A stretch of DNA of 64,000 nt from Xanthomonas phaseoli pv. phaseoli. GTDB lineage: Bacteria; Pseudomonadota; Gammaproteobacteria; Xanthomonadales; Xanthomonadaceae. The position numbers and the translations under genes were made by a program. Location: NCBI GenBank assembly GCA_022749655.1, contig CP094243.1, positions 1,054,001-1,118,000 of the forward strand, written 5' to 3'. The notes beneath the pieces are model-generated. The model did no database searches, was not told the origin of the DNA, and was given only the letters and a program-made list of their open reading frames with translations. The first letter of the stretch is position 1. Each line of letters starts with the position of its first letter. Positions 3,036 to 37,142 of the stretch are shown here, in pieces.

Positions 3036-4151
3036 TCAACTGCGCGGCGGCACGAACGGGCTGGCCACTGCCAGCGTGGACGCGGGCAGCGCCTGCGGTG
3101 CAGGGCAATGGCTGGGGTCTTGTTGCACCTGTGCCAGCCATTGGTCGATCGGTCCGCCGAGCACGTCCAGCCGCAGTGGCAGGCTCAAATGGTTTTCGCC
3201 AGGCAGTTCGAGGTAATGCGCACGCGCGCTGGCCAGGGCCAGTGCGCGGCCATGCGCCACAGGAATGTGCTGATCGGCATCGCCGTGCAACAGCAGCACG
3301 CAGCTGCGCGTGTCGGCCAGGGCGTGCGCGACATCGACACGGTCCAGGTCCAGCTTGAGCTGGGTGTCGGCCGCCGCAATCACCGCGTCGATATTCTGGT
3401 CGGCATAGCGCCAACGCGCATACGCCGCCACCGCCCGCCCACGCCAGCCGAGCGGTTGGCTGGCGAGCAGGTGCGGCACCATGTCGCGAATGCCGCGCCC
3501 GGCATTGGCGAAGGATTCCATTGCCACCACGCCGGTTACGCGCGAGCCGAGTTTGTCGGCAGTAAACAGCGCGGTGGCCGCACCGTAGGAAATACCGAAC
3601 AGATACAGCGGCCCGCGGATTTCGCCGCGTGGTTGCAGTGAGTCGAGCACATCGATGACGTCGTCGGATTCGCGTGTGCCGTAGCCGGAGGGGCCGCCGC
3701 CGGAATGACCATGATTGCGAAGGTCGATGGTGACCACGCGGTAGCCGGCCTGCGCAAGCTGCAGCGACCAGGGCAGCAACGAGTCGCCATCCATCATCCA
3801 GCCGTGCAGCAGCACTACGGTGCCGCGCGGCACTGGCGGTTTGGCAGTCGGTAGCTGGAAACTGAAATCCACATCCAGCGCATGCGCCGGGTCGTTGCGC
3901 TGCCCCAGGTAGCGATAGTGCATGGCGTACTGGCCGGGGTCGATCGCGCGCCAGAAGATCGGCACGCCATCGCGCGTCACCACATGCCCGCTGCGGTTGG
4001 GCACCGTGGCGATGGTGGCGGCAATGCGTTCTTCGTCCAGTAGCGGCGAGGTGCCACCGGGCGCAACCAGGCGCTCGCTGAGCGAGGTCGAAGAAGAGGA
4101 GCAGCCGGCCAGCCACAGGCAGGCGCAGACCAGCACAAGCAGGCGCGTCAT
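3036..4151 (-). CDS. Alpha/beta hydrolase lipoprotein
   Basis: About 371 residues. The chosen ATG at 4151 gives a lipoprotein signal, MTRLLVLVCACLWLAGC, with lipobox LAGC at residues 14-17; the longer frame to 4247 would bury it. The alpha/beta hydrolase fold shows an oxyanion LLHGW, a nucleophile elbow GISYG, an acid in LLHGDADQH and a histidine in GENHLSL. It is probably a serine esterase or lipase anchored in the membrane and facing the periplasm. The substrate is unknown. It is convergent with rarD. Confidence 0.8.
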   Translation of the reverse strand: MTRLLVLVCACLWLAGCSSSSTSLSERLVAPGGTSPLLDEERIAATIATVPNRSGHVVTRDGVPIFWRAIDPGQYAMHYRYLGQRNDPAHALDVDFSFQLPTAKPPVPRGTVVLLHGWMMDGDSLLPWSLQLAQAGYRVVTIDLRNHGHSGGGPSGYGTRESDDVIDVLDSLQPRGEIRGPLYLFGISYGAATALFTADKLGSRVTGVVAMESFANAGRGIRDMVPHLLASQPLGWRGRAVAAYARWRYADQNIDAVIAAADTQLKLDLDRVDVAHALADTRSCVLLLHGDADQHIPVAHGRALALASARAHYLELPGENHLSLPLRLDVLGGPIDQWLAQVQQDPSHCPAPQALPASTLAVASPFVPPRS

Positions 4152-33943: not shown

Positions 33944-33971
33944 GAAGAGGGCCGCAAGCGCGGCCCTCTTC
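33944..33971 (-). terminator. rtcB terminator hairpin
   Basis: GAAGAGGGCCGC pairs perfectly with GCGGCCCTCTTC around a four-base loop, beginning at the rtcB stop codon. It is a strong 12-bp stem without a long T run. Confidence 0.7.
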
Positions 33972-35203
33972 TATCCCTTGATGCACACCACCTGGCGCAA
34001 GGTGTGCAGCACCTCGACCAGATCCCGCTGCGCCGCCATCACTGCATCGATGGACTTGTACGCGGCAGGCGACTCGTCGATCACTGCCGCGTCCTTGCGG
34101 CATTCCACATGTGCGGTGGCCTCGCGATGCTGTGCCAGGGTGATTTGCGCGCGTGCAGCGGTCCTGCTCATCACGCGCCCTGCGCCGTGGCTGCAGCTGT
34201 GGAAACTGTCGGCGTTGCCCAACCCGCGCACAATGTGGCTGCGCGTGCCCATGCTGCCCGGAATGATGCCCAGCTCGCCGGCACGAGCGCTGACCGCGCC
34301 CTTGCGGGTGATCAACAATTCCTCGCCACCGTGCGTTTCCTTTTGCACATAGTTGTGGTGGCAATTGACTGCGAGCTTTTCCAGCTGGAATTTGGGCAAG
34401 CGGTGACGCATCTCGGCCAGCACGCGCGCCATCATCGCCTCGCGATTTTCGCGGGCGTAATCCTGCGCCCACGACACCGCTTCGACATACTCGTCGAACA
34501 AAGGCTCGCCCTGCATGAAGAAGGCCAGGTCCTTGTCGGGCAGATGAAAACCCAATACGCGATGCGCCAGTTGCTCACGCGCGCGCTCGATGAAATACGT
34601 GCCGATCAGGTTGCCGGTGCCGCGCGAACCGCTGTGCAGCATCACCCAGACCGCATCGGTTTCGTCCAGGCAGATCTCGATGAAATGGTTGCCGCCACCC
34701 AGCGTGCCGATCTGGCAGTCCAGCTTGTCGGTCCGGATGCGCTTGTGCTGCTGCTTGATGGCGTCCAGACGCTGCACCAGCCCGGACTGCGCGATGCGGG
34801 TCTGGATGCTGTCCGGCAGCTTGCGGTGCTCGCCGCCACGGCCGTTGCCCACCGGCACGCTGCGCTCGATGCTGGAACGCAGCTGCGCCAGACTGTCGGG
34901 CAGGTCGTTGGCGCGCAGCGTGGTGCGCACCGCCGCCATGCCGCAGCCGATATCCACGCCGACCGCCGCCGGGATGATGGCGCCACGGGTCGGAATCACC
35001 GAGCCCACGGTTGCGCCTTTGCCCAGATGCACGTCTGGCGTCACCGCGACCCACGGACCGACAAACGGGACCGCTGCGATATTGCGCAGCTGCGCATGCG
35101 CCTGCTCTTCCAGCGGCACGCCGCGTACCCAGCCCTTGATCGGGGTGCTGCTGCCTTCGGCGTGCAGAAATTCAAAGTGTTGTGATGTACTCATTGTTGT
35201 CAT
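33971..35203 (-). CDS. rtcB: RNA-splicing ligase RtcB
   Basis: A 410-residue RNA ligase that joins 2',3'-cyclic phosphate and 5'-hydroxyl ends. Metal and active-site motifs are present: GVDIGCGMAAVRT, LGGGNHFIEI, LHSGSRGTGN, NCHHNYVQKE, GSMGTRSHIVRG and SCSHGAGRVMSR with the histidine that takes GMP. Starts at ATG 35203 or 35194 are both possible (MTTMSTSQHF or MSTSQHF). No archease or rtcA lies nearby. It is 45 bases downstream of the slipin gene on the same strand, a pairing known from bacterial RNA-repair operons. Confidence 0.94.
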   Translation of the reverse strand: MTTMSTSQHFEFLHAEGSSTPIKGWVRGVPLEEQAHAQLRNIAAVPFVGPWVAVTPDVHLGKGATVGSVIPTRGAIIPAAVGVDIGCGMAAVRTTLRANDLPDSLAQLRSSIERSVPVGNGRGGEHRKLPDSIQTRIAQSGLVQRLDAIKQQHKRIRTDKLDCQIGTLGGGNHFIEICLDETDAVWVMLHSGSRGTGNLIGTYFIERAREQLAHRVLGFHLPDKDLAFFMQGEPLFDEYVEAVSWAQDYARENREAMMARVLAEMRHRLPKFQLEKLAVNCHHNYVQKETHGGEELLITRKGAVSARAGELGIIPGSMGTRSHIVRGLGNADSFHSCSHGAGRVMSRTAARAQITLAQHREATAHVECRKDAAVIDESPAAYKSIDAVMAAQRDLVEVLHTLRQVVCIKG

Positions 35204-35248: not shown

Positions 35249-36373
35249 TCATTGCCTGATCGTCACCAATTGTTTCAGCACGCCATCCAGGCCGCCGAAT
35301 ACGGTGAGCTTGTCGATCTTTTCGGTGACCTTTTCCAGCGCCTCCAGTTCCTTCAAACGCATCAGTACCGGGCTGTCTTCGATCAGCTTGGCGGTGTTGA
35401 GCAACGAGCGCGTGGCGTTGGCCTCTTCGCGCCGACGGATGACGTTGGCTTGCGCCTGCTTCTCCGCCTGCACGACTGCGTTGAGGATCTCGCGCATCTC
35501 GCCCGGCAGGATCACGTCCTTGACGCCGACACCCAGTACCTCGATGCCGAAGCCGCTCACGCTGCCGCGCACATACCCGAAGATATCTGCATCCAGGCAG
35601 GCCTTGTCGCCCAACAACTCGTCCAGCGTCTTGGCCGAGACTGCGCGCCGCAAACCGTACTGCAACTCGCGATACAGGTAATCGCCGGCCTTGGCCACGC
35701 GCGTACGCATCGCCACGGCATCGGTGACGCGCATGCTGGCGGCCAGGTTGACCCGCAACGACACCTTGTCGCGCGTCAACAGCTCCTGTCCGGACACTTC
35801 GACCGACTGCACGCGCAGATCGATTACGTCGGTGCTGATGTTCTTCTGGAAATTCCAGAATGCATACGCCCCCGGCCCGAACGGTGCAAGCAGCTTGCCG
35901 TCGACGAACACCAGCCCTTGCGACTCGGCCGGCACATCCATGCAGACCGCCACACGCGACAGCGTGCCGAGCTGGCGCAGCCTGCGCTGCACATCGGTGG
36001 GCACCTGCAGCCCGTCGCCCAATGGCAGGGTCTGCACCTCGATTGCCGACGGACCACGCCAGTAAAGCGTGCGCGTGCCCGGTGGCAGCACGTCGTCGAG
36101 CTTGCCGTTGCGGATCAGCAAGCCGACCTGCACGGTGCCGATGTCGGCCAGCACGAAGTGTTGCGGCAGGATGCTGCCGAGCGTGTCGATCAGCATTTCT
36201 GCATCGCAGCCCACATCGGCGCCTTGCGTGATGGCGTGGACGATGACCTGGCGGCGACCCAACGGGTCGAACAGGCGATAGACGCCGGGGACGAGCACGC
36301 GCTCGAACCGACGGTTGCGATACACCAGGCCGCGCTCGCCGTCACCGATCACGACCCTCTTGGTCCAGAACAT
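35249..36373 (-). CDS. Slipin (SPFH/band-7 family) protein
   Basis: A 374-residue protein. Residues 1-120 form a divergent N-terminal domain (MFWTKRVVIGDGERGLVYRN) without an evident membrane helix. The SPFH domain covers about 140-320, with VDGKLLAPFGPGAYAFW, DLRVQSVEVSGQELLTRDKV, RYRELQYGLRRAV-like and SGFGIEVLGVGVKDVILPGE. A coiled coil, EKQAQANVIRRREEANATRS, follows. The family oligomerises into membrane-associated rings. Linkage to rtcB suggests a role in RNA repair stress, as noted for rtcR-type operons; no rtcR is present here. ATG at 36373 follows an AGGAG site. Confidence 0.88.
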   Translation of the reverse strand: MFWTKRVVIGDGERGLVYRNRRFERVLVPGVYRLFDPLGRRQVIVHAITQGADVGCDAEMLIDTLGSILPQHFVLADIGTVQVGLLIRNGKLDDVLPPGTRTLYWRGPSAIEVQTLPLGDGLQVPTDVQRRLRQLGTLSRVAVCMDVPAESQGLVFVDGKLLAPFGPGAYAFWNFQKNISTDVIDLRVQSVEVSGQELLTRDKVSLRVNLAASMRVTDAVAMRTRVAKAGDYLYRELQYGLRRAVSAKTLDELLGDKACLDADIFGYVRGSVSGFGIEVLGVGVKDVILPGEMREILNAVVQAEKQAQANVIRRREEANATRSLLNTAKLIEDSPVLMRLKELEALEKVTEKIDKLTVFGGLDGVLKQLVTIRQ

Positions 36374-36402
36374 GGCACTTCTCCTTGGGTTTGGCTCTGG
36401 TG

Positions 36403-36456
36403 GTCCGATCCGGGAATGCAGCCGTTCCGCCGCCCGGATCGGACTGCTGGCGGAAC
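36403..36456 (-). promoter_or_regulatory. Interlocking inverted repeats in slipin leader
   Basis: Two perfect inverted repeats cross each other. GTCCGATCCGGG at 36403-36414 pairs with CCCGGATCGGAC at 36433-36444 (12 bp). GTTCCGCC at 36424-36431 pairs with GGCGGAAC at 36449-36456 (8 bp). In RNA they could form either exclusive hairpins or an H-type pseudoknot; as DNA they could be activator sites. They lie 30-83 bases before the slipin ATG. Confidence 0.6.
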
Positions 36457-36463
36457 GTGTGCC
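36449..36463 (-). promoter_or_regulatory. Weak sigma-54 promoter candidate
   Basis: On the minus strand GGCAC is followed at the correct GG-N10-GC spacing by GC (GGCACACGTTCCGCC). The -24 half matches the consensus well, the -12 half poorly. It overlaps one arm of the inverted repeats. RtcR-controlled operons use sigma-54, which is why the site is listed. Confidence 0.25.
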
Positions 36464-36727
36464 GATGCAACGCGGCGTTGAAAGGTGGAAACGCCGGTGA
36501 CGGCGGCCGTGCGGGGCGCAATGCGCTGTTGGCGCCTGCATTTGTGTGACTGCTGCGGTGCGATGGCTTGCGTAGCGGCAGCGAACGGCGCAGCACGCGC
36601 GTTCAGGGCAATGGCCCGGCAGGGCGCCGCTGCTGTTGCAGGCAGTCAGGCGATGGCTTGCCTGTTGCCTGCGGCATGGGCGTTTCCGTAAGGGGACTTG
36701 CGTCCCGAGGAATGACCGAGAAGGTCA

Positions 36728-36801
36728 TGCATGGAGCGGGATTCGAACCCGCGACAGACAGATTACAAATCTGTTGCTCTACCCAACTGAGCTATCCAGG
36801 G
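36728..36801 (-). tRNA. tRNA-Thr (anticodon TGT), mismatched acceptor
   Basis: The minus strand folds as a 74-nt tRNA: TA at 8-9, D stem GCTC/GAGC, anticodon stem ACAGA/TCTGT with loop TTTGTAA (anticodon TGT), a five-base variable loop and a perfect T arm GCGGG-TTCGAAT-CCCGC. The acceptor arms CCCTGGA and TCCATGC pair at only five of seven positions, with C-C at 1-72 and C-T at 3-70, and CCA is not encoded. Either the 5' end has been altered by a junction, or this copy is degenerate. Confidence 0.7.
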
Positions 36802-36802
36802 G

Positions 36803-36867
36803 CGGGTATTCCGGAATCGAACCAGGACTACGGCTTTCGCCGCCGCTCCACCAGGAGCCGATACCCG
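36803..36867 (-). ncRNA. 65-nt tRNA-like element
   Basis: Directly upstream of tRNA-Thr on the same strand, 65 nt fold as a shortened tRNA. CGGGTAT pairs perfectly with ATACCCG as a 7-bp acceptor. A D-like arm GCTCC-TGGT-GGAGC and a T arm CCTGG-TTCGATT-CCGGA (four pairs, standard T loop) are present. The anticodon position is reduced to a GGC...GCC stem with a loop around GGCGAAA that lacks the usual T33. It may be a degenerate tRNA, or a tRNA-like RNA such as those found in RNA-repair operons. Confidence 0.5.
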
Positions 36868-37142
36868 TAACGAGAAACATGCCAAAGAGTTCGGTATACG
36901 CCACGGCATCGCCGCGCGCACCAGCTGGAATAAACTCCAGGCCGCTGAATATCTTTCGCAGTGTTTCTGATCACCGTTTTATTCAAACGGTAATTCTTGT
37001 CTGTGCATGACCACGCGCTACCCGTGCCCGGCACCTGGGCACAGCGCTCTCGCGCCTGGTCGCGTGCAACGTCCATGTTGTCGGGCAATCCATGCCCGGG
37101 TGCCTGGAAGGTCATCCACAAGATGTGATGCGAACGCACAAC
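36868..37142. other. Intergenic, no supported gene
   Basis: No believable open frame. An AT-richer patch at 36945-37000 may hold the promoter for the leftward tRNA-like/tRNA unit, but no motif is convincing. Confidence 0.4.

What the first reader, a model, noticed from the sequence alone, without database searches (positions are those of the whole stretch)
36373..36867. tRNA-like element, tRNA-Thr, slipin and rtcB in one minus-strand row: a possible RNA-repair operon with its own RNA
In several bacteria rtcB operons encode a slipin or Ro-type protein and structured noncoding RNAs with tRNA-like modules (YrlA in Salmonella). Here a 65-nt tRNA-like element and a tRNA-Thr with a damaged acceptor lie on the same strand directly upstream of slipin-rtcB. 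The gene order is seen; co-transcription and a role in repair are inference. No rtcR, rtcA or rsr is present in the window.
Basis: partly seen in the sequence, partly recalled or inferred. Interest (0 to 1): 0.78.

Follow-up and report, generated by a model that had tools for sequence, protein, structure and literature searches.

The report
Tandem tRNA-mimic leader of RNA-repair operon
Just upstream of a slipin and RNA-ligase gene pair lies a conserved structured RNA that carries two side-by-side fake tRNAs whose anticodon loops differ from species to species, so it cannot serve in protein synthesis and probably works with the RNA-repair machinery encoded next to it.

Summary

In the genus 17 of 35 genomes carry the leader, all with slipin and rtcB. 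Of 181 distinct loci found through slipin (alpha-, beta-, gammaproteobacteria), 151 have tandem T-arms upstream.

The modules are not decoding tRNAs: anticodon positions 34-35 are nearly random, 40 triplets occur, loops have 3-9 nt, and B's acceptor most often has 4 pairs. Where rtcR is adjacent, a sigma54 site lies about 10 nt before the RNA in most loci tested.

Most likely a tRNA-mimic cofactor or bait RNA for a slipin-RtcB repair complex. Band-7 proteins with a 'tRNA-like molecule' were predicted in 2016 (recalled abstract). Loop hypervariability, 5' domain and start-site match I found in no held paper. Expression is unmeasured.

The parts
36973..36991 (.). Inverted repeat ACCGTTT-GAATA-AAACGGT directly upstream of the RNA's 5' end; possible operator/promoter region (a terminator-like site for plus-strand transcripts was called at the same place)
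   Evidence: sequence; kept in most of the genus copies aligned
36872..36969 (-). 5' domain of the leader RNA: closing helix P1, P2, hairpin P3, near-invariant helix P4
   Evidence: covariance model R1 74.8 bits; covariation. The window's copy (as L056) is one of the 43 sequences of the model
36893..36922 (-). near-invariant P4 motif GGUGCGCGCGGC..UGCCGUGGCGUAUACC
36802..36868 (-). tRNA-like module A: 7-bp acceptor, D arm, anticodon arm capped by GAAA, T arm; in many relatives the 3' end reads ACCA (here GCCC)
   Evidence: acceptor covariation
36728..36801 (-). tRNA-like module B (called tRNA-Thr tgt): intact D, anticodon and T arms, only 4 bp of acceptor (TGGA/TCCA) in the fold; anticodon loop UUUGUAA
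36712..36728 (-). hairpin P5 AUGACC-UUCUC-GGUCAU
   Evidence: covariation
36693..36706 (-). hairpin P6 GGGAC-GCAA-GUCCC
   Evidence: covariation
36679..36687 (-). conserved GGAAACGCC element after P6
   Evidence: alignment
36381..36386 (-). Shine-Dalgarno AAGGAG of slipin
   Evidence: sequence
35249..36373 (-). slipin, SPFH/Band-7 protein with extra N-terminal beta repeats (374 aa)
33971..35194 (-). rtcB, RNA ligase (407 aa from the ATG at 35194)

Best explanation
The feature is the non-coding 5' part of the slipin-rtcB transcript: a structured RNA with a 5' domain, two abutting tRNA mimics and two hairpins. SHOWN by comparison: it is one conserved structure, linked to this slipin family and mostly to RtcB, and its tRNA modules keep the tRNA elbow (U8, A14, the D-loop GG, G46, G53-C61, T arm) while giving up what decoding needs (a fixed anticodon, in B a full acceptor). 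INFERRED: it is made with the operon and binds the slipin scaffold, as Y RNAs bind Ro proteins; its tRNA-shaped arms present changeable anticodon loops to the enzymes that cut tRNA anticodon loops. That would make it bait or decoy held beside RtcB, which seals cuts with 2',3'-cyclic-phosphate and 5'-OH ends (established knowledge of RtcB). The order of steps and the bait function are not shown.
For: Conserved linkage: (17 of 17 genus genomes with the leader carry slipin and rtcB; in G012 on two contigs, in G009 slipin is split). Structure: 77 consensus pairs, 51 with changes on both sides; 5' domain 94.2% of cells paired against 32-47% when slid, 0 of 500 shuffles. Model R1 finds the 5' domain at the expected place above 18.5 bits in 57 of 98 loci not used to build it, and at 55 bits or more in 16 of 35 genus genomes, all leader carriers. 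Non-decoding: 203 unique elements, 135 distinct loops; in the 126 with 7-nt loops the entropy is 1.96/1.86/1.43 bits at positions 34/35/36, while at positions that the search pattern did not fix U8 is 126 of 126, A14 126, G53-C61 126 and G46 125. Transcription: sigma54-type site in 19 of 20 loci with rtcR just upstream (shuffled 32 of 400), and the model's 5' boundary 8-14 nt after the -12 GC in 7 of 9. RtcR senses broken tRNAs in Salmonella (PMC7790460, passages read).
Against: No expression data. The wide set of loci was found through slipin, so this RNA without slipin would have been missed outside the genus (in the genus the R1 scan found none above 28.9 bits). The loop is the fastest segment between sister species (32 of 99) but not significantly faster than the P3 hairpin loop (34 of 129, P=0.20), so free drift is not excluded. 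Most loops do not copy loops of the host's own tRNAs (8 of 80 distinct loops match; 4.9 expected, P=0.07, or 8.2 expected, P=0.64, by another sampling), which a strict decoy might be expected to do. Module A often has a tetraloop, and 22 of 181 loci show one strict T-arm only. RtcB was not found within the fetched flanks in 28 of 83 long loci.
Confidence: 0.55

Rival explanations
1. Scaffold or tether RNA: the leader RNA is a structural cofactor of slipin (comparable to Y RNA with Ro/Rsr) that uses the tRNA elbow to recruit tRNA-binding enzymes; the anticodon loop is simply unused and drifts.
For: The RNA stays beside slipin in long loci where no rtcB was found (18 of 28 with a T-arm pair, 10 with one), though all these loci were found through slipin; elbow positions are kept; other unpaired parts of the RNA also vary fast; Burroughs and Aravind 2016 proposed Band-7 modules as scaffolds with cognate ncRNAs (recalled abstract; citing passages in PMC13404743).
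Against: Loop changes exceed four-fold codon sites (23 of 77 against 285 of 2259, equal-length loops, P=7e-5) and seven other unpaired segments pooled (32 of 99 against 136 of 672, P=0.006); U33 (86 of 126) and A37 (105 of 126) are partly kept.
Confidence: 0.3
2. Cis-acting sensor: the leader stays in the mRNA and cleavage of its anticodon loop by a nuclease changes stability or translation of slipin-rtcB.
For: No terminator called between RNA and slipin; the RNA begins near the predicted sigma54 start where rtcR is present; RtcR was found in 1 of 32 genomes of the window's family, so the others would need another sensor.
Against: About 300 nt of linker separate the RNA from slipin, and I did not look for a structure masking the ribosome site; in two records of what looks like one locus (L121, L224) the RNA lies about 1.5 kb from slipin.
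Confidence: 0.12
3. Decaying tRNA genes or a working extra tRNA-Thr next to an unrelated operon.
For: B scores above the tRNA cut-off (62.7 bits).
Against: Helices kept by compensatory changes over many genera, anticodons differ between close species, loops of 3-9 nt, and a canonical tRNA-Thr(TGT) is elsewhere in the genome.
Confidence: 0.02

Closest known systems
SPFH/Band-7 modules with 'a novel tRNA-like molecule' in RNA-repair systems (Burroughs and Aravind 2016, NAR 44:8525; abstract recalled, paper not held; [quoted passage not shown]
   Same: Band-7 protein, tRNA-like ncRNA and RNA ligase in one operon, proposed as an RNA-repair scaffold
   Different: I could not read how they describe the RNA.
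Salmonella rsr-yrlBA-rtcBA operon and YrlA Y RNA (PMC7790460, passages read)
   Same: tRNA-like ncRNA inside an rtcB operon; rtcR adjacent in many beta- and gammaproteobacterial loci here
   Different: No Rsr/TROVE in 32 of 32 genomes searched of the window's family, and the YrlA model scores 17.9 of 69 bits; two tRNA modules; slipin in place of Rsr
Anabaena TrcR regulon: tRNA array, rtcB and slipin alr0740 co-repressed (PMC10272220, passages read)
   Same: slipin, RtcB and extra tRNAs regulated together
   Different: Gene numbers and the plasmid place of the array indicate unlinked genes; a 26-gene tRNA array, not a structured leader
Pseudomonas aeruginosa PaFlo8 (PA14_60630) in the rtc locus (PMC13086221, passages read)
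   Same: SPFH protein beside rtcA, rtcB and rtcR
   Different: The word tRNA does not occur in that main text; I did not check the PA14 locus itself

Membership tests
SPFH/Band-7 RNA-repair operon with tRNA-like ncRNA | SPFH/Band-7 protein encoded | tested here: met
   Pfam Band_7 2.9e-30; stomatin and vault folds
SPFH/Band-7 RNA-repair operon with tRNA-like ncRNA | RNA ligase in the operon | tested here: met
   RtcB 9.9e-120
SPFH/Band-7 RNA-repair operon with tRNA-like ncRNA | tRNA-like ncRNA next to the SPFH gene | tested here: met
SPFH/Band-7 RNA-repair operon with tRNA-like ncRNA | nucleotidyltransferase nearby (accessory in my reading of the recalled abstract, not treated as defining) | tested here: not met
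   tblastn of the Citrobacter protein against the window: best E 0.017 over 31 residues; found in 9 of 83 long loci
SPFH/Band-7 RNA-repair operon with tRNA-like ncRNA | same RNA as the one described in 2016 | not testable with these tools
   paper not held
Bacterial Y RNA / YrlA | Rfam YrlA model above cut-off | tested here: not met
   17.9 of 69 bits
Bacterial Y RNA / YrlA | Ro/Rsr (TROVE) protein in the genome | tested here: not met
   0 of 32 genomes (17 genus, 15 other family carriers of slipin); one control genome rang
Bacterial Y RNA / YrlA | tRNA-like module | tested here: met
Functional tRNA | fixed anticodon for its isotype | tested here: not met
   40 triplets in 126 elements; loops of 3-9 nt in 203
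Functional tRNA | 7-bp acceptor stem | tested here: not met
   B-type elements (TGGA): 4 pairs in 41 of 63, 7 in 2 of 63; module A of the window has 7
RtcR-controlled rtc operon | rtcR in the genome | tested here: not met
   window's genome 0; 1 of 32 genomes of its family; but rtcR was near slipin in 24 of 83 long loci
Vault-like (MVP) protein | N-terminal MVP-type repeats | tested here: inconclusive

The most novel reading that the evidence does not exclude
The RNA is an evolving bait: a slipin-bound pair of tRNA mimics whose anticodon loops are renewed species by species to attract, titrate or report anticodon nucleases, with RtcB at hand to reseal the cut, so that the loop sequences record which nucleases a lineage has faced.
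Probability: 0.28. Interest if true: 0.92.

Novelty: new variant of a known kind. Interest (0 to 1): 0.74.

Why it matters
RtcB operons are widespread but their physiological substrates and triggers are poorly known. A conserved leader RNA that keeps the tRNA elbow yet changes its anticodon loop from species to species makes a concrete test possible: does the loop predict which nuclease the module counters? It also gives this slipin family, whose role is unclear, a likely RNA partner, and it shows that a tRNA finder calls such mimics tRNA-Thr, -Lys, -Asn and so on, which can pollute tRNA annotation.

Tried and rejected
1. Functional tRNA-Thr or pseudogene pair: rejected.

2. Gene conversion from genomic tRNAs as the source of new loops: 0 of 126 anticodon arms equal an arm of the 40 distinct real tRNAs parsed from G000. 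G000 has 54 tRNA matches including B; only this genome was used as reference, so conversion in other genomes is not excluded.

3. Strong claim of diversifying selection: the first test (40 edits in 113 loop positions against 440 of 3257 four-fold sites, 16 sister pairs) looked decisive. The control on other unpaired segments showed the P3 loop nearly as fast (P=0.20), so I keep it only as suggestive. Dropped before that test: second records of one genome (L171, L173, L219, L228), pairs sharing a locus with a closer pair, four-fold distance under 0.01 or over 0.25, slipins of unequal length or under 80% identity, and loci whose B did not fit a strict pattern (73 loci entered). The pooled comparison left out the A anticodon loop (13 of 124), the P6 tetraloop (6 of 60) and the B D-loop (16 of 132), which are slower; adding them would widen the gap.

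4. Y RNA membership: not met. 5. Rfam family for the 5' domain: none up to E=5.

6. Slipin in phage records: no match at 1e-15. 7. PADLOC: no family for slipin or RtcB at 0.001. 8. Other partners in loci without rtcB: ten downstream proteins of those listed were scanned; four had no Pfam family, the others were STAS/CheW, a transporter, an oxidoreductase, an AAA protein, PhyH and a PolyA_pol protein: no common partner.

9. Papers: ten searches listed no paper that I could see to describe the loop variability or the 5' domain; I read passages of nine papers, none in full. Most subscription papers are not held, and recent work on bacterial vault-like proteins should be checked before any claim of priority.

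10. An orientation error (loci of whole genomes are in contig orientation) made one search's alignment unusable; redone. 11. A first sigma54 pattern with wrong spacing found few sites; corrected to GG-N10-GC, before which I had seen such a site in L273 and L274.

12. Search for solved structures of a bacterial relative of the whole slipin: 22 sequences at E of 1 or less, all matching the SPFH half.
Full report
WHAT IS THERE. On its minus strand lie, in order, module A (36868-36802), module B (36801-36728), hairpins, slipin (36373-35249) and rtcB (35194-33971). B passes the Rfam tRNA cut-off (62.7 bits, cut-off 29); A does not pass any (tRNA-Sec 25 of 47 bits). Folded alone, A forms a 7-bp acceptor, a D arm, an anticodon arm closed by GAAA and a T arm; B forms only four acceptor pairs (TGGA/TCCA) but complete D, anticodon and T arms. 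No minus-strand terminator, and no sigma70-type promoter, was called between 37100 and 36350.

LINKAGE IN THE GENUS. The leader was found with 100 bits or more in 17 of 35 genomes. All 17 have an rtcB orthologue (90% identity or more over at least 381 of 406 residues; 18 of 35 genomes in all) and a slipin orthologue (16 full length, in G009 split in two pieces). In G012 leader and genes lie on two contigs, so their adjacency is not seen there. G033 has rtcB, only the C-terminal part of slipin and no leader. G011, G019, G020 and G014 have rtcB fragments and no leader. So the three parts come and go together. In G008 module B is present but the sequence upstream of it is replaced. The 5'-domain model R1 found 55 bits or more in 16 of 35 genomes, which are the 17 carriers without G008; the best other match was 28.9 bits.

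LINKAGE BEYOND THE GENUS. The slipin query matched at 1e-40 in 79 of 247 family genomes (23 of 54 genera) and 21 of 369 class genomes; an alignment of relatives matched at 1e-60 in 23 of 398 phylum genomes. Of 197 loci, 11 exact duplicates and 5 with under 300 nt upstream were set aside; 181 remained: 151 have two strict T-arm motifs 55-90 nt apart within 900 nt upstream of slipin, 7 have a pair 40-54 nt apart, 22 have one, and 1 has none (L057, a contig start). Of 185 stretches taken downstream instead, 1 had a pair 40-90 nt apart and 16 had one motif; 0 of 960 shuffled upstream stretches had a pair 55-90 nt apart. Species are not independent samples, and all these loci were found through slipin, so the RNA without slipin would have been missed. 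Of 83 long loci (not de-duplicated) rtcB was found in 55, rtcR in 24, the nucleotidyltransferase in 9; the 28 without rtcB all keep T-arms (18 a pair, 10 one).

STRUCTURE. An alignment of 58 Lysobacterales leaders gave 77 consensus pairs, 51 of them with at least one double change that keeps the pair: closing helix P1, helix P2, hairpin P3, the near-invariant P4, both cloverleaves, and hairpins P5 and P6 after B. For the 5' domain (43 sequences), 94.2% of cells pair, 182 cells have double changes against 49.5 in shuffles (0 of 500 as high), and sliding the partner drops pairing to 32-47%. Model R1 built from these was searched in 98 other loci (a few are one place fetched twice): 57 have a match above 18.5 bits (the highest chance score in the 20 control sources) at the expected place and 8 have a weaker one there. 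Off-place matches were 11: nine at 22.5 bits or less, and two at 35.4 bits (L121 and L224, where the RNA lies about 1.5 kb upstream). In whole genomes chance reaches 28.9 bits, so single weak matches prove little; it is the place that counts. Hits include loci outside the gammaproteobacteria (L185-L188, L190-L192) and Pseudomonas (L244, L251). No Rfam match up to E=5 covers the 5' domain.

NOT A DECODING tRNA. A parser for well-formed elements (fixed TTCRA in the T loop, GCTC-type D arm, full 5-bp anticodon stem; mostly B, some A) found 203 unique element sequences in 192 loci. Loops have 7 nt in 126, 4 in 27, 6 in 26, 5 in 16, 8 in 6, and 3 and 9 in one each; 135 different loops occur. In the 126 with 7 nt the entropy is 1.96, 1.86 and 1.43 bits at positions 34, 35 and 36. 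At positions that the pattern left free, U8 and A14 are invariant, the D loop has GG in all 126, G53-C61 is invariant and G46 is 125 of 126. Forty triplets occur. U33 is kept in 86 and A37 in 105 of 126. Of the 63 with the B-type TGGA, 41 have 4 acceptor pairs and 2 have 7. The genome has its own tRNA-Thr(TGT) with CCA.

ARE THE LOOPS UNDER DIVERSIFYING SELECTION? Between 16 independent sister pairs the loop differs at 40 of 113 positions (edits), against 440 of 3257 four-fold sites of slipin, 594 of 4496 linker positions and 33 of 464 D/T-arm positions. With equal-length loops only it is 23 of 77 against 285 of 2259 (P=7e-5). But other unpaired parts of the RNA also change fast: the P3 loop 34 of 129, the P2-P1 strand 22 of 98, the variable region 16 of 74; others are slower (A loop 13 of 124, D loop 16 of 132, P6 tetraloop 6 of 60). 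The anticodon loop (32 of 99 in that alignment) is not significantly above the P3 loop (P=0.20) and is above seven pooled unpaired segments (136 of 672, P=0.006). One of the 32 loci (L060) lacked a tandem and dropped out of the segment comparison. I conclude that the loop is free of any decoding constraint and possibly accelerated. Loops equal a loop of a real G000 tRNA in 27 of 126 elements (13.7 expected, P=0.0006), mostly CTCATAA (11), the loop of the genome's Met tRNAs; counted as distinct loops it is 8 of 80 (4.9 expected, P=0.07; 8.2 expected, P=0.64, if the 126 are resampled), and no whole arm matches.

TRANSCRIPTION. rtcR was found near slipin in 24 of 83 long loci; in four of them it lies 2-3.4 kb off. 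In the other 20 a sigma54-type site (TGGYAY-N7-GC) lies in the 900 nt before slipin in 19 (shuffles 32 of 400; none in L126); in loci of the window's family it is in 3 of 75. I took eleven loci with an R1 match for the distance: nine had a site, and the RNA's 5' boundary lies 8-14 nt after the -12 GC in seven; L258 (21) is off, and L260 (35) matched only from model position 28. Three of the nine R1 matches (L250, L258, L260) are at or below the chance score; the six above it give 10-14 nt. The boundary was defined in Lysobacterales, most of which lack RtcR, so the agreement is independent support that the RNA is the 5' end of the operon transcript. What drives it in the window's genome is unknown; an inverted repeat (36973-36991) sits right before the RNA. 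In 32 slipin carriers of the window's family (17 of the genus, 15 others of those found) TROVE was found in 0, RtcR in 1 and RtcA in 1 (the same one, G006, which has a second rtcB 60% identical to the window's).

MECHANISM. Shown: a conserved structured leader, slipin-linked, built from non-decoding tRNA mimics, placed at the predicted start of RtcR-controlled transcripts where RtcR is adjacent. Inferred: it forms an RNP with slipin; its changing anticodon arms act as bait or decoy for anticodon nucleases next to RtcB. A scaffold role without use of the loop is the main rival. In Salmonella, tRNA halves with 2',3'-cyclic phosphate activate RtcR, and the authors themselves suggested that YrlA could inhibit the nuclease competitively (PMC7790460, passages read).

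PRIOR WORK. The 2016 review by Burroughs and Aravind (abstract recalled; not held) names Band-7 modules with a novel tRNA-like molecule and a nucleotidyltransferase; [quoted passage not shown] So the association is known as a prediction. My ten searches of the held library listed nothing on loop hypervariability, the 5' domain or the start-site match; that is no proof of novelty.

Noticed in passing
L273, L274 (E. coli and Citrobacter plasmid-collection records): Enterobacteria carry slipin with a nucleotidyltransferase (and in many E. coli a zeta toxin gene) between rluF/DUF3811 and lysC, with a sigma54-like site and a reduced leader (by eye: 5' domain-like sequence and one T-arm hairpin, no anticodon arm). 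In E. coli, 1616 of 5426 genomes hold a place covering at least 80% of the query.
   Followed up: partly
L275 about 3100-3230 (Subdoligranulum record): A Bacillota slipin relative has a T-arm motif and a P4-like GGTGCGCG..GCGTATGCCGG stretch upstream, so the RNA may reach beyond Proteobacteria (read by eye).
   Followed up: no
window 36973-36991: Inverted repeat ACCGTTTGAATAAAACGGT just before the RNA start, kept in most genus copies; possible operator of an unknown regulator that replaces RtcR.
   Followed up: no
L014 (G008): Module B is intact but module A and the 5' domain are replaced by other sequence on this contig; natural disruption or assembly fault.
   Followed up: no
L276 and G006:C1:973110-978605: One genus genome has a second, RtcR/RtcA-containing rtc locus besides the slipin-rtcB one.
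   Followed up: no
L247 5176-6429: Next to slipin a poly(A) polymerase / CCA-adding-type gene (PolyA_pol, HD domain) and no rtcB in the fetched flanks, with a match to the nucleotidyltransferase further on.
   Followed up: no
L163, L165-L169: Divergent leaders in the window's family (L163 shows only one strict T-arm); may show how modules are lost.
   Followed up: no
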